Source of the DNA: an uncultured Gemmatimonadota bacterium
Lineage (GTDB): Bacteria; Gemmatimonadota; Gemmatimonadetes; Gemmatimonadales; Gemmatimonadaceae
Direction of reading: 5' to 3'
DNA: 64,000 nt
NCBI GenBank assembly: GCA_902826615.1
Contig: CADEFN010000005.1
Coordinates: forward strand, 62,001 to 126,000
Shown here: in pieces, positions 4,097 through 18,062 of the stretch
Position numbering within the stretch: the first letter of the stretch is position 1
Layout of the letters: the number at the start of each line of letters is the position of its first letter
Notes under the pieces: model-generated
What the model saw: only the letters and a program-made list of their open reading frames with translations
Databases searched by the model: none
What the model was told of the DNA's origin: nothing
Made by a program: the position numbers and the translations under genes

Positions 4097-5629
4097 ATGT
4101 TTCGCCGTCTTTCCTGTCTCGTCCTCGCCTCCCTGACGACCGCCGCGGGCGCCGTCGCGCAGCCCGCCCCCCACGCGCGCATGCAGGAGGTCATGAACCG
4201 CCCCGAGTTTGTGCACGCACATTGGGGGATGGAGTTCTACGACATCGCCAGCGGCAAGGTGCTCATGTCGCATAACGGCGAGCGTCTCTTTGTGCCGGGC
4301 TCCACCACCAAGGTCGTGACCATGGCGACCGCCATGCAAACGTTAGGCGCGGACCATCGCTTCCGTACACGTGTCTATCGCACCGGTCCGGTGAAGGATG
4401 GCATGGTGCAGGGTGACCTGGTCCTGGTGGCCTCGGGCGACCCCAACATCTCGGGGCGGGTGCGCGACGGTGACCGCTACGCCTTCATCGATCAGGACCA
4501 TTCGTATGGCGGTCAGCCCCTCCCAAGTGACCCGCTGCAGACACTGCGGCAGATGGCACAGCAGGTCGCCGCGAAGGGCATTCGTGGAGTGACGGGTCAG
4601 GTGATTGTGGATGCCTCGCTCTTTCGTGAAGGGGCGCGTGAACTGGGCACACGCATTGTGCTCTCCCCCATGGTCGTAAACGACAATGTGATCGATCTGG
4701 TGGTGACCCCGGGTAAACGGGCGGGGGAGCCGGCGACGGTGACCATGACCCCGAAGACATCGTTGCTCACGGTGCAGGCCTCACTCACCACCACCGACTC
4801 CGGGACTGCCCCGGCGGTTCGCACCATCGAGGACAGCACCAACAAGGATCGCCGGTACCTCGTCATCACGGGGTCGGTGCCCGTGGGACCGCCAAGCAAC
4901 CCGCGCTGGGCGGTGCCATCGCCGGCACGTTTCGGCGAGATCACCTTCACCGAGGTTCTCAACGACGCGGGCGTCTCGGCCATCCCGCGGCTCGCGTCGC
5001 GTCAGGTGGACATGTCGGCGCTTGCCGCTCGTTATGCAGATTCCCTGATGGTGGCCGAACATGTGTCGCTGCCGCTGGCCAAGGAGGCTGTGGTGCTGCT
5101 CAAGACATCGCAAAACCTGCACGCCAGCAACTTTCCCCTCGTGCTGGGCGCGCTCAAAGGTGGCAACAGCAAAAACGGCTTTGACATTGCACGCGAGTGG
5201 CTGGTAGGCGAAGGGCTCGATCTCAACGGCGCGGTGCAGGGCGATGGCGCCGGAGGTGATGCCTACTTTGCTCCGCGTTTCATGACGCGGTTGCTGGCCA
5301 AGGTATGGGGCAAGCCGTGGGCACAGGATTTCAAGATGGCCATGCCTACGCTGGGGAAGGATGGCACCCTTGCCGCGATCCAGGTGAATAGCCCGGGTGC
5401 GGGGAAGGTCTTTGCCAAGACCGGCACCTTCGGATCGTTTGATCCACTCAATCGCCGGCAGCTCATTCATGGCAAGGGGCTGGCAGGCTTCTTCACATCG
5501 AAAAGTGGCCGCGAGATTGCCTTTGCCATTTATGTCAACAACGTCTCCGTCGCGCAGGGTGACCCGGCGATCGTGGCGGGGCAGGCGTTAGGCGAAATTG
5601 CGTCACTGGCCTGGGAGGTCACCAGGTAG
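4097..5629 (+). CDS. dacB: D-alanyl-D-alanine carboxypeptidase/endopeptidase, PBP4 type
   Basis: A 510-residue peptidase S13 protein with a signal peptide (MFRRLSCLVLASLTTAAGAVAQ). It acts in the periplasm on peptidoglycan peptides, removing terminal D-Ala or cutting D-Ala-meso-DAP cross-links. All three penicillin-binding motifs are visible: SxxK at Ser69-Lys72 (STTK), SxN at 338-340 (SQN) and KTG at 441-443 (AKTGTFG). The length and the wide insertion between motifs 1 and 2 match DacB/PBP4 rather than short PBP5-type enzymes. The M1 aminopeptidase gene follows 62 bases later on the same strand, so co-transcription is possible. Confidence 0.93.
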   Translation: MFRRLSCLVLASLTTAAGAVAQPAPHARMQEVMNRPEFVHAHWGMEFYDIASGKVLMSHNGERLFVPGSTTKVVTMATAMQTLGADHRFRTRVYRTGPVKDGMVQGDLVLVASGDPNISGRVRDGDRYAFIDQDHSYGGQPLPSDPLQTLRQMAQQVAAKGIRGVTGQVIVDASLFREGARELGTRIVLSPMVVNDNVIDLVVTPGKRAGEPATVTMTPKTSLLTVQASLTTTDSGTAPAVRTIEDSTNKDRRYLVITGSVPVGPPSNPRWAVPSPARFGEITFTEVLNDAGVSAIPRLASRQVDMSALAARYADSLMVAEHVSLPLAKEAVVLLKTSQNLHASNFPLVLGALKGGNSKNGFDIAREWLVGEGLDLNGAVQGDGAGGDAYFAPRFMTRLLAKVWGKPWAQDFKMAMPTLGKDGTLAAIQVNSPGAGKVFAKTGTFGSFDPLNRRQLIHGKGLAGFFTSKSGREIAFAIYVNNVSVAQGDPAIVAGQALGEIASLAWEVTR

Positions 5630-5691
5630 CGTCCTCTTGCTCGCCGGGGGCGCTGGCACGAGGTTGTGGTACGCCTATTCGGAGTTGATTG

Positions 5692-7314
5692 GTGCTGCCT
5701 GCCCTCGCCTTCGCCCTCAGCGTCACTGGACTTGCCGCGGATACCTACCCTCGGCAACCGCTCGACGTCGAGCATTATCACTTCGCGCTGACGCTCACGG
5801 ATCAGGACGATCGCATCGCAGGTGATGCCCGTGTGCGTCTGCGCTTTACGGCGGCCGGACAAACGTCGCTCTTTCTCGACCTCGGTTCGGCAGTGCCATC
5901 GCGCGCTGGACGGGGGATGACGGTGAGCGGCGTTTCGCTGGGCGCACAAGTGCTGAACTTCACGCACGACAAAGACCGCCTGACGATTACCCTGCCATCG
6001 CCCTCGGCGGTGGGTCAGGTGCTGGAGCTTCGCGTCCGGTACGGCGGTCTCGCGGCTGATGGTCTGCAGATCAAGCCGACGCGCAACGGGGATCGTGCCT
6101 TCTTCTCCGACAACTGGCCCGACAAGGCGCGTCAGTGGCTCCCCACGATCGATCATGTCGGGGACAAGGCCACCATGGAGATGGCCGTGACGGCGCCGGC
6201 ACACTATCAGGTGGTCTCGAATGGGCGCCTGGTGGAGACGAGTGATGTAACCGCCGGGGTAAGGCAAACCGTCTGGAGCCAGGGTATCCCCATTTCTCCC
6301 TGGCTGTTCACGCTTGGTGTCACCCGCTTCGCCGTGCAGCGACTGGGTGACTATCGCGGCGTCCCGCTGGAGAGCTGGGTCTTTGCGCCTGAGCGCGACA
6401 AGGGGTTCCACGACTTCGCGGTGCCGGTGCGCGATGCCATGGCATTCTATTCAGAGTTTGTCGGGCCTTTTGCGTACGAAAAACTTGCCAACATCCAGTC
6501 GGTGGCCACCGGGGGCGGCATGGAGGCCGCCACCGCCATCATGTACGATCAGCGCAGCGTGGACGGGACCCGCTCGCTGCGATGGCGCAACGTCATCATT
6601 CACGAAATCGCCCATCAATGGTTTGGGAATGCGGTCACCGAGCGTGATTGGGACGACGTCTGGCTCAGTGAAGGGTTTGCCACCTACTTCACGCTGCTCT
6701 TCATCGAGCACGCGTATGGCCGCGACGAGTTTGCAAAAGGGTTGCGCGAGTCGCGCAGTACTGTCGTGGACTTTTACGCCAAGCGTCCCGACTATCGCGT
6801 TGTGCACGAGGGATTGGCCGACATGTCGCAGGTGACAACGTCCATGACCTACCAGAAGGGATCATGGGTGCTTCACATGCTGCGTCAGCGCATTGGCGAC
6901 GATCGCTTCTGGACCGGGATTCGCCGGTACTACGCACGGTACATGAACGGGACCACGTCCACCGCCGAGTTCCGCCAGGTGATGGAGGAGGTGTCGGGGC
7001 AGGATTTGCGTCCGTTCTTCGACCAGTGGCTGGTGCGTGGCGGTATCCCGCGTGTGGAAGGCACCTGGCAGTGGGACGCGAGCGCGAAAGCGGTGACGGT
7101 TGAGCTGCGGCAGAGCCAGCCGGGGCCGGCCTGTGCGCTTGACCTCGATGTGGGAGCGGACCTCGCCGATGGTTCAGTCTCGGTGCAGCGTGCCACGTTA
7201 GGCGCCGAGCCGGTGCGACTCCGGTTTGACGCTCCGGAACGGCCGCGTGCGGTTCGGCTCGACCCGCACACGCGTGCGCTCTTTTCCGGGGAGCTCGAGC
7301 TCCGCAGTCGTTAG
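5692..7314 (+). CDS. exported M1-family metallo-aminopeptidase
   Basis: A zinc aminopeptidase of about 540 residues. Counting from the TTG at 5689, HEIAH at 305-309 with Glu328 18 residues later gives the gluzincin HExxH-x18-E site. GGMEA near 276-280 replaces the canonical GAMEN exopeptidase motif. Start choice: GGAG at 5681-5684 sits 7 bases before GTG 5692, better spaced than the in-frame TTG three bases earlier. The N-terminus (LPALAFALSVTGLAADTYP) reads as a signal peptide, so the enzyme is probably periplasmic or secreted. It lacks the long C-terminal domain of PepN and resembles the short bacterial M1 group. It ends in a TAG within CGTTAGG. Confidence 0.9.
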   Translation: MLPALAFALSVTGLAADTYPRQPLDVEHYHFALTLTDQDDRIAGDARVRLRFTAAGQTSLFLDLGSAVPSRAGRGMTVSGVSLGAQVLNFTHDKDRLTITLPSPSAVGQVLELRVRYGGLAADGLQIKPTRNGDRAFFSDNWPDKARQWLPTIDHVGDKATMEMAVTAPAHYQVVSNGRLVETSDVTAGVRQTVWSQGIPISPWLFTLGVTRFAVQRLGDYRGVPLESWVFAPERDKGFHDFAVPVRDAMAFYSEFVGPFAYEKLANIQSVATGGGMEAATAIMYDQRSVDGTRSLRWRNVIIHEIAHQWFGNAVTERDWDDVWLSEGFATYFTLLFIEHAYGRDEFAKGLRESRSTVVDFYAKRPDYRVVHEGLADMSQVTTSMTYQKGSWVLHMLRQRIGDDRFWTGIRRYYARYMNGTTSTAEFRQVMEEVSGQDLRPFFDQWLVRGGIPRVEGTWQWDASAKAVTVELRQSQPGPACALDLDVGADLADGSVSVQRATLGAEPVRLRFDAPERPRAVRLDPHTRALFSGELELRSR

Positions 7315-7334
7315 GTAGCCGAACGGCATCGCAG

Positions 7335-7365
7335 GCGGTGCGCATTCGGGACGTTCGCGCACCGC
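7335..7365. terminator. hairpin between convergent genes
   Basis: GCGGTGCGC (7335-7343) pairs perfectly with GCGCACCGC (7357-7365) across a 13-base loop. It lies in the 59-base gap between the convergent aminopeptidase and methyltransferase genes. There is no T-run on either side, so termination in either direction is inferred from position only. Confidence 0.4.
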
Positions 7366-7373
7366 TGCCAGTA

Positions 7374-8120
7374 TCAGGTGGCGACCACGAGCCGTAGTCC
7401 GGCGTCGAATGTGTCGAGCGCTCGCAGATGTCCATGCCGCCTGTCCCACTCACCGCTGTCCAGGTCGCGACGCACTTCAAGAACAACCCGGTCCACGACA
7501 CTGGCCGGCATCCGCGAGAATCCTGACGTCGCCGCTCGTGCGCTCGGATCGAGCACGCGCTCGGGGTGAGCCCAGAACGCACCAAGCATCCAGTCGGTTG
7601 TGTCACGCGGAATCGGCACCGTCTCGACTCGCACCTTACCGCCGAGCCACTCGGCGAGCTGTTCCATCGACGGGAAGATCCGGCGATCCAATGCGGCTAC
7701 TTCGGGCAGGTAGTCTGCCAGCAGCCACATGGCGCTGATGACGGCGACGTCATAAGTCAGGATCACCACGGTGTCTCGTGCGACGCGACGGAGTTCGCGA
7801 ACCCCTTGCTCCCGCTCTTCATCCCAGTGGTGGACGCTGAGGATTGCCATCGCCGCATCGACCGCGCCATCGCGAAGCGGAATGCTGCCCGCGGACGCCC
7901 GAATAGCCGGGGCGAGCTCACGCGGGCGTTGTCCAGCCATCACGTCGCTCGGTTCAACGGCAATCACGTGCCGGTCCAATGGTTCGTAGGCACCGCTGCC
8001 CGCGCCAACGTTGACGACAGTTCGCGCATTGCCCAACGCCGCGTGGATCAGCGCGCGAAAGCGCGGATCTTCGCGGCGAGTCTGGGCGTAGCCCTGTCCA
8101 ATGGTGTCGTAGCGAGCCAA
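7374..8120 (-). CDS. class I SAM-dependent methyltransferase
   Basis: A 248-residue cytosolic methyltransferase. Motif I is VVNVGAGSGAYEP (about residues 35-47), followed by the acidic end of strand 2 (VIAVEPSDVM). A downstream segment (DGAVDAAMAILSVHHW) matches the Methyltransf_11 pattern. The start called here is TTG at 8120 (MARYDTIGQGYAQTRRED), which fits the usual N-terminus of this group; there is no obvious Shine-Dalgarno. The substrate cannot be read from the sequence, and the neighbours do not help. It stands alone, convergent with the aminopeptidase gene. Confidence 0.85.
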   Translation of the reverse strand: MARYDTIGQGYAQTRREDPRFRALIHAALGNARTVVNVGAGSGAYEPLDRHVIAVEPSDVMAGQRPRELAPAIRASAGSIPLRDGAVDAAMAILSVHHWDEEREQGVRELRRVARDTVVILTYDVAVISAMWLLADYLPEVAALDRRIFPSMEQLAEWLGGKVRVETVPIPRDTTDWMLGAFWAHPERVLDPSARAATSGFSRMPASVVDRVVLEVRRDLDSGEWDRRHGHLRALDTFDAGLRLVVAT

Positions 8121-8326
8121 GGGGTTTGAGGCCGTGAGGAACCAGAGTGAAGCCGACTGCGAACGTCCTGTCTCTGCACAACGCTGTCAAGCAGCCAGGT
8201 ACACGTGGGTGCGGTCACGACGGGAAGGGCCCGTCATCCAAAATGGTGGCGTCATTCCCATGCTGACGGTACAATCCCGCGCGCCTGATCGGGCTTCTTT
8301 GCTGGTTCCCCCACCCAAATTCAGAA

Positions 8327-8737
8327 ATGACTCACGCAAGCGCGGCAATCAACGCTACGACACTCGGCTGCTCCATTACCTGCAAGGATCTCGACGCATC
8401 GATCCGCTTCTATCGTGATGCCGTTGGCTTTGCCGTTGAGGCGACCTACGAAACTGAAGGCAAAGTGACCACCGCCGTGGTGGCAGCTGGGAGCTGCCGC
8501 ATTGTACTGAACCAGGACGATGGCAAACTTGGCTGGACCCGTATCAAGGGGCAGGGCTTCTATCTGCAGATCAATGTCGCGAGCCTCGCAGATGTCGACG
8601 CCGCGGCCGCTCGCATCAAGGCGGCGGGTGGGTCGCTCACCGACGAACCGGCCGATCGCCCGTGGGGCGTCCGGATGTTCCAGTTCCGCGACCTCGATGG
8701 TTTCAAACTCGGTGTGTCGGCGCCGCTCCAGGGCTAG
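8327..8737 (+). CDS. VOC (glyoxalase/bleomycin-resistance fold) protein
   Basis: A 136-residue single VOC domain. It begins ATTLGCSITCKDLDASIRFY, the common first beta-alpha unit of the family (xxxxVxDldaaixFY). The second half has DVDAAAARIKAAGGSLTDEPADRPWGVRMFQFRDLDGFKLGV, here described by its pieces: a helix, then a WG-FRDLDG strand carrying the usual late acidic residues. Such proteins act as lyases, dioxygenases or drug binders. The substrate is unknown. A strong hairpin lies just after its stop. Confidence 0.85.
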   Translation: MTHASAAINATTLGCSITCKDLDASIRFYRDAVGFAVEATYETEGKVTTAVVAAGSCRIVLNQDDGKLGWTRIKGQGFYLQINVASLADVDAAAARIKAAGGSLTDEPADRPWGVRMFQFRDLDGFKLGVSAPLQG

Positions 8738-8760
8738 CCGACCACTGCCGGATCTCCAGG

Positions 8761-8792
8761 CGAACCCGGTGACTCGTTGATCACCGGGTTCG
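8761..8792. terminator. 12-bp hairpin at convergent gene ends
   Basis: CGAACCCGGTGA (8761-8772) and TCACCGGGTTCG (8781-8792) are exact reverse complements around an 8-base loop. The right arm contains the stop codon of the minus-strand amidohydrolase gene. On the plus strand the stem is followed by ACCCGTTTCC. A shared bidirectional terminator is likely. Confidence 0.65.
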
Positions 8793-10604
8793 ACCCGTTT
8801 CCTGCAGCAAGGAGAGAATCCTCGGGTGGTTGAGTCGCCGTGCCGTTTCCATCGGCGTCACCCCCCGTGCCGGGATGGTGAGATCGGCCCCCGCCGCGAG
8901 GAGCACGCCTAACGCTTCAACCGCACCGCCCTCCACCGCATGATGCGCCGGGGTGAAGCCGGTGTTGTTTGTGAGGTTGATGTTCGCCCCGCGAGCCAGC
9001 AGCGCACGGACGGCGGCCGCGCGATTACCCGCGGCGGCGTAGTTGAGTGGTCGGCGGTTCCCGATGCCGTCGATGGAATCAATGCGCGCCCCGCGCGCGA
9101 GCGCTCGCGTGATGGCGGCGGTGTCTCCGGAGACCGACGCAATCCAGAGCGCGCTCTGGGCATCGACTTGCGTGGTCGATTCGACACTCGCCAGCATGGA
9201 GTCGAGCGCCGCCCGTCCGAATACCCGCCCACCACGGATGACCGTCCGGATCTTTCTGGTGTTGGCGATGTCGGCGAGCGGATTCGCATCCAGCAGTACG
9301 AGGTCTGCGACCCGTCCGGGCTGCACGCTCCCAAACTCCGAGGTGCGTCCGAGAAACTCGGCCCCACTCAGCGTGGCCGCACGCAGCGCCTCGGCCGGCG
9401 ACAGCCCTGCCTTGACCAGTTCACCCAGTTCGTCGTGCACACTGGCCCCGGGAATGACAAATGAGTCACCCGCGTCGGTGCCGAGCATGACCGGGACGCC
9501 TGCCCGATAGGCTGCATTGGTGAGTTGGAGTCCCTTCGTGTAGAAGTCCATGAAGGACTTGCGCCCGGCTGGTGAGGGATCGCTGGCCACCATGCCATTG
9601 GCATCGGTGTACCATCCCATCTGCTGCCGCATGGGGATGTAGCGCACACGGGCGTCGGCGCGATACGCGTCGTCGTCTGCGAACGCATCCATCTTGCGCG
9701 TCACGTGTGTCGGCGTGATGTACGTCTTGTTGCGTGCGAACGTCCCAAAGACCTCGGCACATGAAGCGGGTGAGTATTCATCCACCATCCGCTGACGTTG
9801 CACCGTCGGGGGAATGGTGAGGAGGCGCTTGCGCATTGAATCGGCCCCCGGCCAGCAGTTGAAGAGGAAGATCCGCGAGTGCTCGATGCTGCGTTGTCCC
9901 GCATTTGAGAGTTCGAGGGCACTCATGGCTGCCGGTTCGTGACCGGCAAACGGCAGACCCAGGAGTCGCGCTTCGGATGTCAGGCCGAGGTACCCCGCGC
10001 GTGGGATGCCGTTGTAGATCTTGATGAAATCGTATCCCGCGGTCTTGATGTGCCGAGCAAGCTGGCGTCCCTCCTCTTCGGTAGCCGTCTTGTAGTACTG
10101 CGGCATGGTGTTGGGCACACCGGCGGCGCCATTCACGCTCCAGCTGCCGATCGAGAGGATGCGTGGCCCTGTCAGCGCCCCGGTATCGATCTGCGCCGCC
10201 ACATCCCGGTAACGGGCAAGGGCGCCACTCAGCATGGGCGTATTCATGACCCGTATGCCTGTTACACCGAACGCCGTGAAGAGGGGGAGCTGCTGGCGAA
10301 TCGGGTCGAACTGCATGAACAGGTGGGCATGCATGTCCCACAGCCCCGGGATTACGAATGCGCCACGGCCGTCGATGGTACGGGCACCAGCGGGAAGCCG
10401 CGTTCGTCCGGCCGTCGCCACGTCCACGATCCGGTCACCCTTGAGGAGCACGTCGCGATTTGCGAGGGTGCGGCCTGTGGTGACATCAACCACGGTGACA
10501 TTCCGGATCGCGAGATCGGCGTCACTGGCGATGGTGGCCCTGGGATTCGTCGCACACGCTGCGAGCACGAGGCCGGCGATCAGAGTCGGGAAGGGCCGAC
10601 ACAT
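8781..10604 (-). CDS. lipoprotein amidohydrolase with C-terminal ankyrin repeats
   Basis: A 607-residue protein from ATG 10604. The upstream in-frame extension lacks a signal, whereas MCRPFPTLIAGLVLAAC gives lipobox LAAC with Cys17. Residues 28-480 form a metal-dependent amidohydrolase (imidazolonepropionase-like): His92 and His94 in DMHAHLF, Lys195 (DFIKIYNG) as the likely carboxylated bridging Lys, His222 (AGHEP), His242 (IEHSR), and a late Asp in LGTDAGDSF. Residues 484-607 form about three ankyrin repeats (IASVSGDTAAITRALARGA; NYAAAGNRAAAVRALLARGANIN; HHAVEGGAVEALGVLLAAGADL). The family often includes dipeptidases and amino-acid or cyclic amide hydrolases; the substrate here is unknown. 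The stop lies inside a strong hairpin. Confidence 0.9.
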   Translation of the reverse strand: MCRPFPTLIAGLVLAACATNPRATIASDADLAIRNVTVVDVTTGRTLANRDVLLKGDRIVDVATAGRTRLPAGARTIDGRGAFVIPGLWDMHAHLFMQFDPIRQQLPLFTAFGVTGIRVMNTPMLSGALARYRDVAAQIDTGALTGPRILSIGSWSVNGAAGVPNTMPQYYKTATEEEGRQLARHIKTAGYDFIKIYNGIPRAGYLGLTSEARLLGLPFAGHEPAAMSALELSNAGQRSIEHSRIFLFNCWPGADSMRKRLLTIPPTVQRQRMVDEYSPASCAEVFGTFARNKTYITPTHVTRKMDAFADDDAYRADARVRYIPMRQQMGWYTDANGMVASDPSPAGRKSFMDFYTKGLQLTNAAYRAGVPVMLGTDAGDSFVIPGASVHDELGELVKAGLSPAEALRAATLSGAEFLGRTSEFGSVQPGRVADLVLLDANPLADIANTRKIRTVIRGGRVFGRAALDSMLASVESTTQVDAQSALWIASVSGDTAAITRALARGARIDSIDGIGNRRPLNYAAAGNRAAAVRALLARGANINLTNNTGFTPAHHAVEGGAVEALGVLLAAGADLTIPARGVTPMETARRLNHPRILSLLQETGRTR

Positions 10605-10665: not shown

Positions 10666-10705
10666 ACAACGCCCCCCGCCGGTTTTAGACGGCGGGGGGC
10701 GTTGT
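10666..10705. terminator. 15-bp GC-rich hairpin terminator
   Basis: ACAACGCCCCCCGCC (10666-10680) is the exact reverse complement of GGCGGGGGGCGTTGT (10691-10705), with an AT-rich loop between them. It lies 15 bases beyond the stop of the duplicated susD 3' fragment. No comparable hairpin follows the stop of the intact susD at 13271. It therefore looks like the original terminator of the SusCD operon, left behind by the insertion. The T-rich side is on the plus strand (TTGTTTGG), so direction is not certain. Confidence 0.65.
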
Positions 10706-10718
10706 TTGGTTGGAACCG

Positions 10719-10889
10719 ATCAGGCGTCCCGATTCGTACAGGCCTTCCAGGTCGGGTTGTTTCGTTCGGCAATTGCGGGCGTGATGTTCATGTCCGTGCC
10801 GTACGTGCCGCCCTTGAAGTACGCACCCGTCGGCCAGATGGCGTTCGGCTGCCGGTTGTACTGACGGACGAGCCGATGCAAGTCGCCCA
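10719..10889. repeat. direct repeat, distal copy (susD 3' end)
   Basis: This is the copy near the terminator. It pairs with 13270-13440 at a constant offset of 2551 bases. No gaps are needed in the alignment. Confidence 0.92.
10720..10889 (-). pseudogene. duplicated susD 3'-end fragment
   Basis: This stretch repeats the last 56 codons of the susD gene at 13271-14653. By hand alignment it differs at 7 of 170 bases, all transitions. The reading frame and stop are kept, and only two residues change (Arg to His, Val to Ile) in a peptide that runs LHRLVRQYNRQPNAIWP ... WKACTNRDA. Homology ends abruptly at 10889. Beyond it the frame runs on for about 23 unrelated codons to an ATG, giving a 79-residue open frame with no signal peptide that is unlikely to be functional. 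It lies directly upstream of the hairpin at 10666-10705. Confidence 0.92.
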
Positions 10890-11451
10890 GTATGCACCCC
10901 GACCTCAGATCGTGGCTCAGCAACTTGAGATTCTGGTTTGAGAAGATCAAACGGGCCACGCGCCTTCGGTGTCACCTGCTCGGACAAGCCTGCCGTCCCG
11001 TTTCGCCGGACGCTCTACCCCACTCAATACGTCCTGAAGGAATCCAAACTCACTACCCAGTGTGCGCTAACCGAACGCAGCTTCGACAGGGGATGAGTCT
11101 TCCCTTTTGCACGCAGGGAGCTGACAGGTGCATATCGTTCGGCCTGCGACACGCGTGTTTCCAGCAGCCGAGCCCAGCAACTTGTCGGCAGTAGACACGC
11201 TACGCAGGAGGGCGACGACTCTCTCGGCGGGTGAGAGTGCAGGTCGAGATTCGTCGTCCTCCTATGGTCTCGCCAGACGGGATACCTAGGCTGGGCGGGG
11301 GGAGTGGCATGCACTAGCTCCGCGTGGCACAAAAGCAGAGTCTGCTACCTAACCAAGGAGAGCTTGACAAGCTGATGACAGAGTGGCATAGTTACCGCGA
11401 CGCAGTCTTAACCTACCAACGCGGCACCTGAAGTGTGTCGTGGGAGGCGCA
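10890..11451. other. non-coding stretch at the left end of the insert
   Basis: About 560 bases with no convincing gene. The short frames here have no signals, family motifs or coherent codon use. Only a promoter-like element near 11364-11392 is supported, in front of the propeller gene. I see no inverted repeats, integrase fragment or tRNA. Confidence 0.6.
11364..11392 (+). promoter_or_regulatory. sigma-70-like promoter
   Basis: A perfect -35 box TTGACA (11364-11369), a 17-base spacer, and CATAGT (11387-11392) as the -10 box. The predicted start of transcription is near 11399, about 50 bases before the ATG at 11452. It is the best consensus match I noticed in this GC-rich window, and it would let the insert be expressed independently of the opposing SusCD operon. 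Confidence 0.6.
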
Positions 11452-12546
11452 ATGCGCTTTGGTCATGATCTCGCTCTCTGGCCCGTTGCCGCAGTGATCG
11501 CCGGGCATCTTCCCGCGCAGCCGGTCAAAAGCGTTCGTGACAACGTTGGTTGCGCACGATGTCGCGTAGACATTGTTGCACACGCACGACTGCCGATTAC
11601 CGATCAGACCGGTCCCGTTGATGTCCGTGTCCGCGTTGCGGTGCGCAGGGACGGCGGCTTCATTGTGGCGCCGACGGGAGGCGGGAGTGCCCTCGCGGCG
11701 TTTGACGGTCGAGGTCGAATCGCGAAGATCGTAGGCAAGGTGGGTCAGGGTCCCGGAGAATTTCAAGGTATCACGAGGGCGATCGTCACGGTCGGAGACT
11801 CTGTCCGCGTCTTTGACGGAGGCAACCGTAGAGAGACAGTATTCTCGCCGACGCTTACATTTGTTAGATCGCGAACGCTTGGGCTCATGCCCACGGACGC
11901 TAGGTTTTTGGCTGGTGGTCGCCTGCTTGTCAATGCAGAGGTAATGACGCAAGACCGTGCCGGACTTCCTCTGCACATAATCGGCCTTAATGGCGACATC
12001 GAGCGCTCCTTCGGCTCGACGGAGGCAGACCTCCTGCCCGGCCGGACACCCTCCTCGATACGCCGCCTCGGCTCGATAGATGGAGGTACAGTATGGCTGT
12101 CCCACCTGGTGAGATACCGAGCGGAGCGATGGAGTTTGGACGGAAAGTTGCTTGAGGTGGTCCAGCGCGAAACGAAATGGTTTCCCTCAGATGCGGCTCG
12201 AGCAACGAATGATCCCCTTGCTATTCGCCCGGAGCCCGTGCTCCTCGGGACATGGATCGACTCTGCCCGCACGCTCTGGACCGCGTCTCTGGTTGCCGAT
12301 GAGAGGTGGAGACCCCGGCGACCCAAGGGTGGCGGTCGCGAGGTAGGGCCGCCCGATATTGCGGAGCGTGACGAGATATACGATACGGTAGTGGAAGCCA
12401 TCGATCCGGCTTCGGGAATCTTGCTCGCGTCCCTTAGAGTGCCTGAGGCCGCGCTGCTGCTGGATGCGCCAGGCTGGATTGCGACGTACAAGACTGAGAG
12501 CGGTGGTGAACGACTGGTGCTTTGGCGGGTGCGGCTCGTTCGTTAG
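11452..12546 (+). CDS. secreted 6-bladed beta-propeller-like protein
   Basis: A 364-residue protein. ATG 11452 has GGGAGG at 11442-11447 with short spacing; GTG 11440 is an alternative. The N-terminus (RFGHDLALWPVAAVIAGHLPAQ) reads as a signal peptide. The body repeats propeller-like blades: a strand ending in a Gly-rich turn, then a new strand, for example FIVAPTGGGSALAAFDGRGRI, VGKVGQGPGEFQG and VRVFDGGNR. GxGPGEFxG is a signature I associate with the 6-bladed propeller proteins common in Gemmatimonadota and Bacteroidota. CARC sits just after the leader. Function is unknown, probably binding at the cell surface or in the periplasm. It reads opposite to the SusCD operon that the insert interrupts, and its codon use looks less GC-biased than that of its neighbours. 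Confidence 0.75.
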   Translation: MRFGHDLALWPVAAVIAGHLPAQPVKSVRDNVGCARCRVDIVAHARLPITDQTGPVDVRVRVAVRRDGGFIVAPTGGGSALAAFDGRGRIAKIVGKVGQGPGEFQGITRAIVTVGDSVRVFDGGNRRETVFSPTLTFVRSRTLGLMPTDARFLAGGRLLVNAEVMTQDRAGLPLHIIGLNGDIERSFGSTEADLLPGRTPSSIRRLGSIDGGTVWLSHLVRYRAERWSLDGKLLEVVQRETKWFPSDAARATNDPLAIRPEPVLLGTWIDSARTLWTASLVADERWRPRRPKGGGREVGPPDIAERDEIYDTVVEAIDPASGILLASLRVPEAALLLDAPGWIATYKTESGGERLVLWRVRLVR

Positions 12547-12578
12547 GTCACTTCTTCGAAGGAGGAAAAAGGTCTACT

Positions 12579-13043
12579 CTGCACGCTTTCGCGCTTGCCA
12601 CTCTGGTCGCAACGAGCCGAGTGGAGCAGCCGATCAACATGCTCGACTTGGCCCCGGCCGCCTCCGGCTGCAAATATTGCCAGTACTGGGATGCTCCCGA
12701 TGGTTATGTCCATCAGTTCCTCGGTCAAAGCTGCTCCGAGATCGGGAACGGGTGCTTCGACTGCTTTAGTTTCAACGCGTGCCATAGCAATATCCAAGAT
12801 GGGACGTGCTGGAGTGGTCACAATTACTGCAGCGGGGGCGATGACTTCGCCGCGATCCACGGGATTGAGGGCCTGCCGGGGCTTGAGAAGGGCGCTACCC
12901 TAGGTAAGCTGGTGAGCCTGCAGCAACGCTTCCCTGCAAGCCTTGTTCTCAATCGGAGTCGAGGCCTTATGCAGGTCATCGACTGCAGGGGTCAGGTGGC
13001 GGCGCAGGTTTCTGTGCGAGCCATACGGATGCGTGCCGCCTAG
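12579..13043 (+). CDS. Cys-rich small exported protein
   Basis: A small protein immediately after the propeller gene (stop 12546). A strong GGAGG lies at 12561-12565, but no ATG follows at normal distance. In-frame candidates are CTG 12579 (154 residues, with a leader-like HAFALATLVATSRVEQ), GTG 12621 and ATG 12639 (134 residues, no leader). The core holds eight Cys spaced C-x2-C-x17-C-x6-C-x2-C-x5-C-x8-C-x6-C, with His and aromatic residues between them (KYCQYWDAP, GCFDCFSFNACH, CWSGHNYC). A Cys-poor tail follows, with one Cys in QVIDCRGQ. The spacing suggests a disulfide-knotted or metal-binding secreted domain. I do not recognise the family. Start and function are uncertain; coding status is supported by the Cys regularity and by linkage to the propeller gene. 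Confidence 0.6.
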   Translation: MHAFALATLVATSRVEQPINMLDLAPAASGCKYCQYWDAPDGYVHQFLGQSCSEIGNGCFDCFSFNACHSNIQDGTCWSGHNYCSGGDDFAAIHGIEGLPGLEKGATLGKLVSLQQRFPASLVLNRSRGLMQVIDCRGQVAAQVSVRAIRMRAA

Positions 13044-13269
13044 GATCCCCTCGCAAGGCTCAAGCTAGCGCCTGTCCACGATGCCGCACTCGCCATGCCT
13101 TCGGACCCGGCACGCTCGCTAGGATCAGCACGACCTGACCGTAGTAACAAGCTGTCAAGCGCCATCTGAAAGTCCCTAGGTGTCGGCCCGTTCAAGTCCC
13201 ATCCGCGTTTTCCGCGGCGCGGCCAAGCCCCCTCCCTTCTTCCCATGAGGAGGCTCGGCTCACACCTGC

Positions 13270-13440
13270 ATCAGGCGTCCCGATTCGTGCAGGCCTTCCA
13301 GGTCGGGTTGTTTCGTTCGGCAATTGCGGGCGTGATGTTCATGTCCGTGCCGTACGTGCCACCCTTGAAGTACGCACCCGTCGGCCAAACGGCGTTCGGC
13401 TGCCGGTTGTACTGACGGACGAGCCGACGCAGATCGCCCA
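13270..13440. repeat. direct repeat, proximal copy (susD 3' end)
   Basis: This is the 3' end of the intact susD gene and matches 10719-10889 at about 96 percent identity by hand count. The two copies bracket about 2.38 kb of unrelated DNA (10890-13269). Confidence 0.92.
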
Positions 13441-14653
13441 CACGATGGGCCTGCAGGTACATCCAGAACCCACGCTCGCGGAAATGGAGATCCTCGCGAG
13501 CCGCGGCGGTGCCCGGATCGGTGAGAGCAGGGAGCACGTCGGGCGTGGCGTTGGAAATATTCCGCGCCGTCCGGGCCCCTGCGTCCGCACGGGCCGCATT
13601 GAGCGACGCGAGCCAGCCGGCGGCATTGTTGGCGGCGAGATCTGCCTCCGCCTCGATCAGGCGTGCTTCCACTCCGGACGCGAGAATGGTTGGGGCTCCG
13701 CCCGCCGGGTAGCCGAGGATCGTGAAGACCTGCGTTGAACCGTCCTGGCCGAGTCGCGAGGTGCTGCTGATGGGCACACGAGCGTCACCGGCAGAACGCC
13801 AGTTCAGCCCGTTGACCCCTTCACGCTCTGACGGGCCGAAGTTCGCCGTGTTCACCATCCAGTCGAAGATGGTGTTCACGAGCGTCGTGGCTGAGTACTC
13901 CTGATTGTAGACAAACGATGTCGGAACTGCCGCCGAGCCCGCGCCATCGCCACCGGCGCGTGTGACGGTGGCTGCATCGGCGAAGCGGCGGAGGTTCACC
14001 AGAGCCCTCGCCTTGCCAATCCGCGCCGCGTTCCGCTGCGTGAGATCGGCGCCGGACGTGGCCAGAATGGCCAACCCGCTGTCCTGTGACGCAATGGCGC
14101 GATTCTGCAGATCGTTGTTTGTCACTGTCACAAACGCCGGGCTCGCGTCATTCACATCGGAGAGCGGCACGCCATTGCAGAAGAGTTCGCCCGCGATGGT
14201 GAGTGCGTACCCGCGCAGCACATACAACTGGCCGAGCTGGGAATTTCTGGTCGCCCCGGCCGGATAGAACTGATTGACCGCCTTGATGGCGCGGACAATG
14301 GCCGTGTACGACTGCGAGAAGTTGTTCCACGCCGCCGCCGGGAAGACGTTTTCGTTGAACGACCGGATGTCGATGTGGTCGGCACCCGGGCGAGCATTGA
14401 TCAGCTCGTCGGAGAGCAGCCCGACGTAGAGGTTCACGCCGACGTTGGTGGTGCCCCCATAGAAATTGGAGAACAATCCGACGGCCGAGGCGCGCAAGGC
14501 CTGTGCGCCGGCAAAGGAGTTCACCGCGTCCGGAGTGATCTGGTCGGGTGTGGAGACGTTCAGGAGTTCATCGCGCGAGCACGAGGCGCTGGCCACGAGG
14601 GCCAGCACACCCGCCAGCCCGGCGCGCACTCTGTTGTAGTAGGCGTTAGGCAT
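13271..14653 (-). CDS. SusD/RagB-family outer-membrane nutrient-binding lipoprotein
   Basis: A 460-residue lipoprotein from ATG 14653 (MPNAYYNRVRAGL...), with lipobox SASC giving a lipidated Cys near residue 25. The body is helical and TPR-like. Family features include LRGYALTIAGELFCNGVPLSDV in the middle (seen as pieces LRGYALTIAGE and FCNGVPLSD), a late EARLIEAEADLA helix, and the REDLHFRERGFWMYLQAHRVGDL region before the conserved tail. It should form the surface lid of the SusC transporter encoded 4 bases upstream (SusC stop 14658). The last 57 codons occur a second time at 10720-10889. No clear terminator follows its stop, unlike the remnant copy. Confidence 0.93.
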   Translation of the reverse strand: MPNAYYNRVRAGLAGVLALVASASCSRDELLNVSTPDQITPDAVNSFAGAQALRASAVGLFSNFYGGTTNVGVNLYVGLLSDELINARPGADHIDIRSFNENVFPAAAWNNFSQSYTAIVRAIKAVNQFYPAGATRNSQLGQLYVLRGYALTIAGELFCNGVPLSDVNDASPAFVTVTNNDLQNRAIASQDSGLAILATSGADLTQRNAARIGKARALVNLRRFADAATVTRAGGDGAGSAAVPTSFVYNQEYSATTLVNTIFDWMVNTANFGPSEREGVNGLNWRSAGDARVPISSTSRLGQDGSTQVFTILGYPAGGAPTILASGVEARLIEAEADLAANNAAGWLASLNAARADAGARTARNISNATPDVLPALTDPGTAAAREDLHFRERGFWMYLQAHRVGDLRRLVRQYNRQPNAVWPTGAYFKGGTYGTDMNITPAIAERNNPTWKACTNRDA

Positions 14654-14657
14654 GTGT

Positions 14658-17600
14658 TTAGAAGCTGAGGTTGACGCGAGCCAGCCAGTAGCGCAACGGT
14701 GGCGCCGCAAAGAAGTCGTTGTTGGAACCAGCGGTGTTGTTGACCGCCGAGTTCATTTCCGGGTCGATCCCGGGGTACTTGGTCCAGAGGACGCCGATGT
14801 TGCGGCCCGCCAGCACCAGCGTGGCGTTCTGCGACTTGACGTATCGTGCCCACGAGGACGGCAGGTTGTACGACAGCGACAACTCTCGGAAGCGGATGAA
14901 GTCGTTGGGGACAAAGAAGCCCCACACCGTCCGCTTGGCCGCGCTGTTGGTCGTGACCGCCGCGGCCTGGTCTTCCAGCGGCGCCTTGGGATCGTTGGCG
15001 GCCTGACAGTTCCCGGAGATGCAGCGCTGGTTCTCGAAGCCCCACTGATTGTAGAAGCCACCACGGTAGTCCATCACGGTCGTGATGCGCAGCTTGTCCT
15101 TGAAGAACCCGAAGTTGTTGGAGAAGCCCGCCTCCCACACCGGGGCCGTCGGACCCGCGTACTCGTCCGTCGACGAGATGTTGATCTCGGCTTCGGTCAG
15201 GATACCGTCACCATTGGCGTCGGCAAACGAGGTGATGCGGCGATCCCAGAGACCGAAGAGGGGATAGCCCACCACGTTCCGGCCTCCCGGCGTGACTGTG
15301 AGCACCGCACTGCCGGCATCCACCAACTCATTCTGGATGTGAGAGCCGTTCAGCTGTGAGCTCCACGACACCTTGTCGTTCTGGAAGATCTGTGCAGCAA
15401 TCGTCAGCTCCTGACCCCAGTTGCGCACCTCGGCCAGGTTCTGCCACACGCCACCCTGCTGCTGCCCGATCGAGGGAGCAATCGGGTTGAAGAAGAGCGC
15501 GTCCCGGCTCTGCTTGGTGAAGTAGGTGGCCTCGATATTCACCCGGCTGTCGAACAAGCCGATGTCGAACCCGAACTCCGTCTCGGTGGTGACTTCGGGC
15601 TTGAGATCGGCATTGCCGATGTTGGCCAGACGCAATGCCGGCTGCTCCGTCCCGCCAATGGGCGCGGTGAAGGCAGACTGGAATTGCAGCGCGGCGGTCG
15701 TGGTCGGCTGCACGCCGGCCTGTCCGTACGCTGTTCGCAGACGGAGGTTGGAGATGCCGAAGCGACCCTTGGGGAACCAGTCTTCGTCGGAGATGACGTA
15801 CGAGAGCGAGGCGCCAGGGTACGTGGTGTTACCGGCGCCGCGACCGAACGCCGAGGCCTGGTCGGTCCGCAACTGGAGCTTGAGGAAGAGTTTGTCGCGA
15901 TGCGCGATGGACTGCTCGACAAATGCGCCGTAGAAGGCGTTCTCTTCGGTGTTCTCCTGCGAAATCTGGATCGCGCCGGCATTCGGCGTGGTCACACCGG
16001 GCGGAATCGAATATCCGCGTCCGATGGTCTGGTACTGCGTGTCCTTGAACCACTGGACGCCGACGGAGGTACGCAGGTTGATCGTCGAGAAGGGGTCGAA
16101 GGTGGCATTGGCGCCCAGGTCGACCGAATACCGCGAGAAGTTGTTGCGGTTGAGGTCCTTGCCGCCCGTCTGACCCGGCGGGCCCCAGCCCGTGATGGTG
16201 CCTTCGCCAAACCGCGCAAAGCGAGTGGAGTATCCCTGGTTCTGGTCGAGCCCCACCACCGCGCGGGTCTGCAGCCAGCTGAGGGGCTGGTAGGAGAGCG
16301 TGGAGGTCATGATCGCGCGCTGATCGCGCATCGTCTGCTCCACCGACATGATGTCGCCGATGTGCTGCGCCGACGTCCCGTTGGTCACCGTGCGGAAGCC
16401 CGGGGCGAAGTAGCTCTGGAACGAGAGACCGGCAAAGAAGCCGCCGTCAAAAAGCGAGTTGAGCGACCGGTCGATGTATCCGCTGGTGACGCTCAGTTCC
16501 ATGTCGGGCCGCAGCGCCATGTTGAAGTTGCCGCGGATCGACGTCTGGTTCAGCTGGTTCGGCCGGATCTGACCGGGGCGCGGACGGGTGCCACGCAGCG
16601 TGGTCAGTCGTGTGATTTCGGCGGCCGGCATTTCGTAGGGGCCGGTTTCTTCTTCGCGATCGCCGGAGATGAAGAAACGCAGCTTGTCGTTACCGCCCGA
16701 CGCACTCACGCCGAGGTTGTAGCGCGGCTGCGTGGAGAATGGCGTGGTTTCCGGATTCTCCAGCGGGTTGAACGTGGTGAGCGAGTCGATGCGGCACCGG
16801 TTGAGCGCCGAGTCGGAGATACGGCACAACACCGCCGCCGTTCCGAGCTGACCGTTGGCGCCGACGTTACGCCCCCAGCTGCGATAGTTGTCGAAGAACT
16901 GCGCCGGCTGTTGCACCTGGCCCTGCTCGTAGTTGGTGCGCCATTCGGTGCGGCCTGCACGGCCACGTTTGGTCTTGATCACCACCACGCCATTGGCGGC
17001 GGCAGTGCCGTACAGCGCGGCGGCCGAGGGTCCCTTGATGATGTCGATCGACTCGACGTCCTCGGGATTGAACGCGGCGAAGCGATTGATGCGCTGCGTG
17101 GAGAAGTTGCCCGGCGCGGCCGAGTTGTCGGCACGTACGCCGTCAATGATGACCAGCGGCTCGTTGGACAGCGAGAGCGAGTTCACACCCCGGATGCGAA
17201 CCGAGGGGGCGGATCCGGTCTGACCCGAACCGAGCTGCACCTGCACACCGGCAGTCCGAGCCGTCAAGGCGTCGTTGATGCTGGTCAGCGGCTGCTGGCC
17301 GACGAGTGAGTCGACCTTCACCGTGGCTACCACGTTTCCAACCGACTTGCGGCTCTGCTCTCCAGTGGCCGTCGTAACGACCGCCTCGAGCTGAATGGCC
17401 GTCTTGACCAGGGAGAAGTCGGCGACCGCTTCTCCTCCGTCGGTGACGGTGACCGCGCGTGTCAGCGGCTGATACCCAAGGCGAAGGGCGCGCACCTGCA
17501 CCGCACCGGCCGGGACTCCCCGAATGATGTAGGTACCATCCTGGCCGGCCACGGCGCCGATCCGAGTGCCCACGACGGTCACTTGTGCGCCGGCGACAGG

Positions 17601-17777
17601 GGCGTTGGACCCCTCCTCGGTCACGCGTCCCCGAATGGCCCCTTCCATGGACGTCTCGGCAGCGGGGGTGCCTCCTGACCCGAGCTCCGCCGCCACCACC
17701 GGCGCAGGTGACCAGAGCAGGGCGGCGGCGATCATCAGCCCTGATCGTGGTATTCGGTTTCTGACAACGATCCGCAT
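14658..17777 (-). CDS. SusC/RagA-family TonB-dependent receptor
   Basis: A 1039-residue outer-membrane transporter. ATG 17777 is preceded by a perfect GGAGG at short spacing, and the protein opens with a signal peptide (SGLMIAAALLWSPAPVVAAE), so longer upstream starts are rejected. A carboxypeptidase-regulatory-like beta domain (GAIRGRVTEEGSNAPVAGAQV, about 45-130) is followed by the plug (VRIRGVNSLSLSNEPLVIIDG; VESIDIIKGPSAAALYG), then a 22-strand barrel ending in a terminal Phe (ARVNLSF), as expected for BAM-dependent insertion. With the downstream SusD it forms a TonB-driven importer for an oligosaccharide or peptide. The substrate is not evident: no glycosidase lies nearby, whereas an amidohydrolase does. 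Confidence 0.95.
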   Translation of the reverse strand: MRIVVRNRIPRSGLMIAAALLWSPAPVVAAELGSGGTPAAETSMEGAIRGRVTEEGSNAPVAGAQVTVVGTRIGAVAGQDGTYIIRGVPAGAVQVRALRLGYQPLTRAVTVTDGGEAVADFSLVKTAIQLEAVVTTATGEQSRKSVGNVVATVKVDSLVGQQPLTSINDALTARTAGVQVQLGSGQTGSAPSVRIRGVNSLSLSNEPLVIIDGVRADNSAAPGNFSTQRINRFAAFNPEDVESIDIIKGPSAAALYGTAAANGVVVIKTKRGRAGRTEWRTNYEQGQVQQPAQFFDNYRSWGRNVGANGQLGTAAVLCRISDSALNRCRIDSLTTFNPLENPETTPFSTQPRYNLGVSASGGNDKLRFFISGDREEETGPYEMPAAEITRLTTLRGTRPRPGQIRPNQLNQTSIRGNFNMALRPDMELSVTSGYIDRSLNSLFDGGFFAGLSFQSYFAPGFRTVTNGTSAQHIGDIMSVEQTMRDQRAIMTSTLSYQPLSWLQTRAVVGLDQNQGYSTRFARFGEGTITGWGPPGQTGGKDLNRNNFSRYSVDLGANATFDPFSTINLRTSVGVQWFKDTQYQTIGRGYSIPPGVTTPNAGAIQISQENTEENAFYGAFVEQSIAHRDKLFLKLQLRTDQASAFGRGAGNTTYPGASLSYVISDEDWFPKGRFGISNLRLRTAYGQAGVQPTTTAALQFQSAFTAPIGGTEQPALRLANIGNADLKPEVTTETEFGFDIGLFDSRVNIEATYFTKQSRDALFFNPIAPSIGQQQGGVWQNLAEVRNWGQELTIAAQIFQNDKVSWSSQLNGSHIQNELVDAGSAVLTVTPGGRNVVGYPLFGLWDRRITSFADANGDGILTEAEINISSTDEYAGPTAPVWEAGFSNNFGFFKDKLRITTVMDYRGGFYNQWGFENQRCISGNCQAANDPKAPLEDQAAAVTTNSAAKRTVWGFFVPNDFIRFRELSLSYNLPSSWARYVKSQNATLVLAGRNIGVLWTKYPGIDPEMNSAVNNTAGSNNDFFAAPPLRYWLARVNLSF

Positions 17778-18062
17778 CGAACACCTCCGTGAAATTGGGG
17801 AACACAGACACGGCAAACGCGGGCGCGCAGCAGCCACAGGCGTCAACCATCCCGCAACGATTGACCGAGGACCCCCGGGGCGCAAGGTGCGAGAGGATGA
17901 AGGGCGTGATCGTTTTTTGGATCTGCGGTCGTCGTAGTGACGATGGATCGCGCGCCTCACTCCACCACACCCGCCGAACCGAACCCGGGTGAGCGCTAAA
18001 GCGGCCCTGGGCCGTGGCCGAAACTACCAGGGTATTCCTCACCTGCCACGAGGCCTCCGCCC

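What the first reader, a model, noticed from the sequence alone, without database searches (positions are those of the whole stretch)
10719..13440. Insert of about 2.4 kb bracketed by two copies of the susD 3' end
The last 170 bases of susD occur at 13270-13440 (intact gene) and again at 10719-10889, with 7 transitions and no gaps. The strong hairpin expected after the operon (10666-10705) sits behind the remnant, not behind the intact gene. This is the layout left when DNA enters a gene's 3' end and supplies its own copy of that end, so the target gene is kept whole. The insert has its own promoter and two genes, reading against the SusCD operon, but no recombinase. It may be a small non-autonomous cargo unit, or the result of recombination between conserved susD ends; both this and the second susD share the LRR(L/M)VRQY tail.
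Basis: partly seen in the sequence, partly recalled or inferred. Interest (0 to 1): 0.8.

Follow-up and report, generated by a model that had tools for sequence, protein, structure and literature searches.

The report
Two-gene insert beside duplicated susD end
A foreign-looking piece of DNA with two genes sits at the end of a nutrient-uptake gene and is bracketed by two copies of that gene's last 171 bases, most likely the scar of a single old insertion rather than an active mobile element.

Summary
10719-10889 and 13270-13440 are a 171-bp direct repeat with 7 differences, all transitions, no gaps. It brackets 2,380 bp unrelated to susD. One statement fails: intact susD has its own strong hairpin at 13222-13259.

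Polarised against 67 other susD genes, the intact copy carries three derived silent changes and the remnant four derived changes, two replacing amino acids, one an arginine invariant in all 67. So the remnant is a drifting displaced piece and the intact gene is under selection.

The insert encodes a six-bladed propeller-like protein and a Cys-rich protein. The propeller's GC3 lies in the lowest 3% of 867 genome ORFs, so foreign origin is likely. No recombinase, terminal inverted repeats, second copy or relative with the same insert was found. Forty-nine susD ends and 1.6 Mb of this genome gave no second case. A same-genus relative lacks susCD and insert beside the neighbouring gene, so no empty site is available.

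Best reading: one-off acquisition by recombination at the susD end. The layout matches prophage e14 in icd, but no integrase was found. Modest interest.

The parts
13271..14710 (-). Intact susD (479-aa ORF from the most upstream start; SusD/RagB-type lipoprotein)
   Evidence: Weak Pfam SusD_RagB match, E 0.019; relatives up to 64 % identical lie next to susC
14658..17960 (-). susC (TonB-dependent receptor) of the same operon
   Evidence: Pfam Plug and CarboxypepD_reg
13270..13440 (-). Repeat copy 1: 3' end of intact susD including stop codon plus one base
10719..10889 (-). Repeat copy 2: displaced susD 3' remnant, carrying R to H at an invariant codon
10666..10705 (-). Perfect 16-bp-stem hairpin behind the remnant, probable original susCD terminator
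   Evidence: 71-nt stretch folds at -39.3 kcal/mol, z -5.5; similar AAC/GTT hairpins follow susD in relatives L065, L070
13222..13259 (-). Hairpin behind the intact susD, inside the insert, between two convergent genes
   Evidence: 77-nt stretch folds at -43.6 kcal/mol, z -4.8; coordinates
10890..13269 (.). Insert, 2,380 bp, 60.4 % GC against 64-65 % in flanking genes
11440..12546 (+). Six-bladed (NHL-type) beta-propeller protein, predicted exported; likely start ATG 11452
   Evidence: Weak DUF5128, NHL structure 6d69 E 6e-8, homologues in 99 of 395 genomes of the phylum
12522..13043 (+). Cys-rich small protein; no ATG at the expected signal peptide
   Evidence: Distant homologues in 4 of 395 genomes; C-terminal likeness to a Cys protein behind a propeller in L085
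8781..10604 (-). Amidohydrolase with ankyrin repeats, the gene downstream of the remnant
   Evidence: orthologue 81 % identical in same-genus G001 without susCD beside it

Best explanation
A 2,380-bp foreign segment (propeller gene plus Cys-rich gene) entered once, at the 3' end of susD, by homology-assisted or illegitimate recombination. One end was joined directly behind the stop codon and the other 171 bp further upstream in a second copy of susD (sister chromosome, or a susD end carried by the incoming DNA), which left the 171-bp direct repeat. susD stayed whole and the old 3' end, with the original terminator, was pushed 2.55 kb away, where it drifts without function. Shown: the repeat, its limits, the drift pattern, the uniqueness in what was searched. 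Inferred: foreign origin, direction of displacement, the recombination pathway.
For: Repeat with sharp ends and unrelated flanks. The changes polarise as 3 silent ones in the intact copy and 4 in the remnant, 2 of them amino-acid changing, including H where all 67 other susD have R: one sequence duplicated, then only one copy constrained. Propeller GC3 0.615 against a genome mean of 0.748, lowest 3.1 %. No close homologue of either insert gene in the own genome. No recombinase, no related ends. The remnant's hairpin resembles terminators behind susD of relatives. Insertions with one homologous anchor and one illegitimate joint are documented in naturally transformable bacteria and discussed for such small variable segments (PMC2884548; PMC3784515).
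Against: The repeat ends one base after the stop codon, which a random joint would do only by chance (a few per cent by rough reckoning) or through selection for an intact gene. No empty site or donor is known. The hairpin behind the intact susD weakens the claim that only the remnant keeps the original terminator.
Confidence: 0.55

Rival explanations
1. Scar of a site-specific integrative element of the e14-in-icd kind: the element carried its own copy of the susD 3' end, integrated there by a tyrosine recombinase, then lost the recombinase or was mobilised by one elsewhere.
For: Same layout as e14 in icd: 165-bp duplicated gene end, 12 exchanges, two conservative amino-acid changes (PMC11148124; PMC6379469). 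Homology ends at the stop codon, as expected of an element selected to restore the gene. The genome holds seven matches to the phage-integrase family.
Against: No recombinase or remnant of one in the insert; the nearest integrase-type gene on this contig is about 355 kb away. No other copy of the insert ends in the genome or in 60 relatives; no other susD end used.
Confidence: 0.2
2. Tandem susCD duplication followed by loss: the remnant is what is left of a second susCD operon, the rest having been replaced by the propeller and Cys genes.
For: Tandem susCD pairs occur in the group (L112, L117, L120, L137, L141). Both copies have a hairpin right behind the stop codon.
Against: No trace of any other part of susD or susC beside the remnant. 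Needs two events, and a duplication would normally carry the downstream DNA along with the coding end, yet similarity stops one base past the stop codon.
Confidence: 0.17
3. Assembly artefact joining two sequences at a susD repeat.
For: The genome is a 98-contig assembly of unknown read type.
Against: The copies differ at 7 positions, the longest identical run is 71 bp, each has unique flanks on both sides, and the contig is 446 kb long.
Confidence: 0.04

Closest known systems
Prophage e14 in E. coli icd
   Same: Insert at a gene's 3' end, gene kept whole, displaced pseudo-copy of 163-165 bp on the far side with a few mostly silent exchanges (PMC6379469, PMC11148124).
   Different: e14 is a prophage with its own integrase and known excision; here 2.4 kb, two genes, no recombinase, no empty site known.
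Homology-facilitated illegitimate recombination / merodiploid formation during transformation
   Same: One homologous anchor plus a non-homologous joint, or pairing between sister chromosomes, can leave DNA bracketed by a duplicated stretch (PMC2884548, PMC3784515).
   Different: Shown in other phyla; competence of this organism was not examined.
Tandem susCD operons in relatives
   Same: Repeated susD ends a few kb apart.
   Different: There both susD are full length and 65-72 % alike; here one is a 171-bp fragment 96 % alike.

Membership tests
Gene-end-targeting integrative element (e14/icd type) | Direct repeat made of the target gene's 3' end, gene reconstituted | tested here: met
Gene-end-targeting integrative element (e14/icd type) | Integrase gene in the element | tested here: not met
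Gene-end-targeting integrative element (e14/icd type) | Same site occupied by related elements, or empty, in relatives | tested here: inconclusive
   No other occupied susD end among 49; nearest susD only 64 % identical; G001 lacks susCD at the locus
Transposon / MITE-like unit | Terminal inverted repeats, short target duplication, several copies | tested here: not met
Homology-assisted one-off insertion | Foreign segment with at least one joint lacking homology, no recombination enzymes, single occurrence | tested here: met
Homology-assisted one-off insertion | Donor molecule with matching homologous anchor | tested here: inconclusive
   No nucleotide-level relative of the insert found in 60 relatives

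The most novel reading that the evidence does not exclude
A family of recombinase-less cassettes that move propeller plus Cys-rich protein pairs into the 3' ends of susD genes, reconstituting the gene, using a host recombinase acting on the conserved susD tail.
Probability: 0.05. Interest if true: 0.65.

Novelty: new member of a known kind. Interest (0 to 1): 0.25.

Why it matters
If the site-specific reading were true, susD ends would be a new class of integration target in a little-studied phylum. As it stands, it is a clean example of how a bacterium can gain genes behind an operon without breaking it, and a warning that a susD 3' fragment beside other genes need not be a gene.

Tried and rejected
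Mobile element with copies: own-genome and 60-relative DNA searches show only susD ends (and a palindromic self-match of the terminator hairpin), no insert DNA. Terminal inverted repeats: none convincing. Decayed integrase in the non-coding parts: no Pfam match; insert proteins have no phage-family match. Structured RNA or tRNA as target: none. Extended susD or susC homology beside the remnant: at shuffle level. Recurrence in other susD loci and in 1.6 Mb of the own genome: only full tandem susD pairs, tandem repeats and a paralogue pair; the C5 146-150 kb pair is a duplicated gene. Closer susD relatives: none above 64 % in 179 genomes of the family. Plasmid records: no match for the Cys-rich protein. 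Papers on NVEALA-type peptide/propeller pairs: none found in the library, so that comparison, which I recalled from memory, is not used.

Full report
Observation. The window holds a 171-bp gapless direct repeat, 10719-10889 and 13270-13440, with seven differences, all transitions. The second copy is the 3' end of an intact susD (13271-14710, minus strand) behind susC. Both copies run from the conserved motif GDLRRLVRQYN to one base past the stop codon. Upstream of the remnant and downstream of the intact copy nothing resembles susD, susC or the other flank above shuffle level, so the limits are sharp. The insert is 2,380 bp.

The intact susD also has a strong hairpin right behind it, at 13222-13259 (the 77-nt stretch folds at -43.6 kcal/mol, z -4.8), as the remnant has its own at 10666-10705 (71-nt stretch, -39.3, z -5.5). 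The remnant's hairpin is the one that resembles the AAC...GTT hairpins behind susD in relatives, so it is still the better candidate for the original terminator, but the argument is weaker than stated. The promoter in front of the insert's genes is a single consensus match where 0.5 is expected.

Polarity. Comparing the seven sites with 67 other susD 3' ends, the remnant has the commoner state at offsets 7, 52 and 79 and the intact copy at 8, 12, 50 and 151 (0-based offsets in the repeat, coding strand). At offset 52 the third base of the codon varies (G 33, C 30, T 4), so that call is the softest. The intact copy's three changes are silent. The remnant's four include V to I and R to H, the latter at a codon that encodes R in all 67. 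That is the pattern of one sequence duplicated and then only one copy selected. It argues against the two ends coming from two different old susD genes. The numbers are small, so this is a consistent pattern and not a test with a strong P value.

Cargo. Gene 1 (11440-12546) is a propeller of the NHL / six-bladed type (weak DUF5128), a family with very many members in this phylum. Gene 2 (12522-13043) is a Cys-rich small protein with distant relatives in four of 395 genomes. In L085 a propeller gene is likewise followed by a Cys-rich exported-looking protein whose end matches (27 % over 73 residues, E 3e-5 for a single comparison), so the pair may be functional, but this rests on one example. 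The GC3 of the propeller is 0.615 and of the Cys gene 0.678, against 0.71-0.82 in neighbouring genes; 3.1 % of 867 long ORFs from 1.6 Mb of this genome are as low as the propeller. A foreign origin is likely but not proved.

Recurrence and relatives. No other copy of the insert in the genome or in 60 relatives. Of 49 susD 3' ends in fetched loci (a few fetches overlap, and the count includes the two copies of this window), only this locus has a partial duplicate; the others with repeats of this length are full tandem susD pairs. A self-comparison of 1.6 Mb, 27 % of the genome, shows no other case. The nearest susD is 64 % identical in protein. The same-genus genome G001 has the amidohydrolase at 81 % identity and a shared neighbour (window 4157-5630), but a D-aminoacylase-like gene (named by inspection of its translation, no family search made) stands where susCD and the insert would be. 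Thus susCD itself is variable here and no empty site can be shown.

Mechanism. The layout is that of prophage e14 in icd (165-bp duplicated end, 12 exchanges). Works like it: possibly. Is one: not shown, because the integrase is missing and the site is not seen reused. A single insertion by homology-assisted or illegitimate recombination explains the data with one event and known processes. The one point that favours the site-specific reading is that the homology ends at the stop codon. Tandem duplication with later replacement remains possible. I put 0.55, 0.20 and 0.17 on these, and 0.04 on an artefact.

Noticed in passing
12522-13043: The Cys-rich gene lacks an ATG at its leader: the best start near a Shine-Dalgarno (AGGAGG, 12560-12565) is CTG at 12579; otherwise ATG 12639 without a leader. 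It may use a rare start or be decaying.
   Followed up: partly
L102 6916-7410 (-) and L085 2501-2989 (+): Related Cys-rich proteins: in L102 the core CxxC...CNSFNSCH...QxGSCxSxHxxC and a C-terminal VxDC; in L085 only the C-terminal VxDCxG part, directly behind a propeller gene. Possibly an undescribed exported protein family; no Pfam match.
   Followed up: partly
genus g74: Genomes of one genus gave up to 219 first-look candidates for the propeller, which suggests a very large paralogue family.
   Followed up: no
G000 C5:146614-150841: Tandem paralogue pair, 853 bp at 87 % identity, both genes on the minus strand.
   Followed up: partly
G000 C16:10767-11369 and C2:944680-945282: Two integrase-type genes with identical scores, the C2 one 1.3 kb from the contig end: perhaps copies of one mobile element that broke the assembly.
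   Followed up: no
window 5630-8826 against L233 3640-4520: Between two conserved genes the window carries a peptidase, a methyltransferase and a glyoxalase-like gene where the same-genus relative has one short gene: a further variable segment.
   Followed up: no
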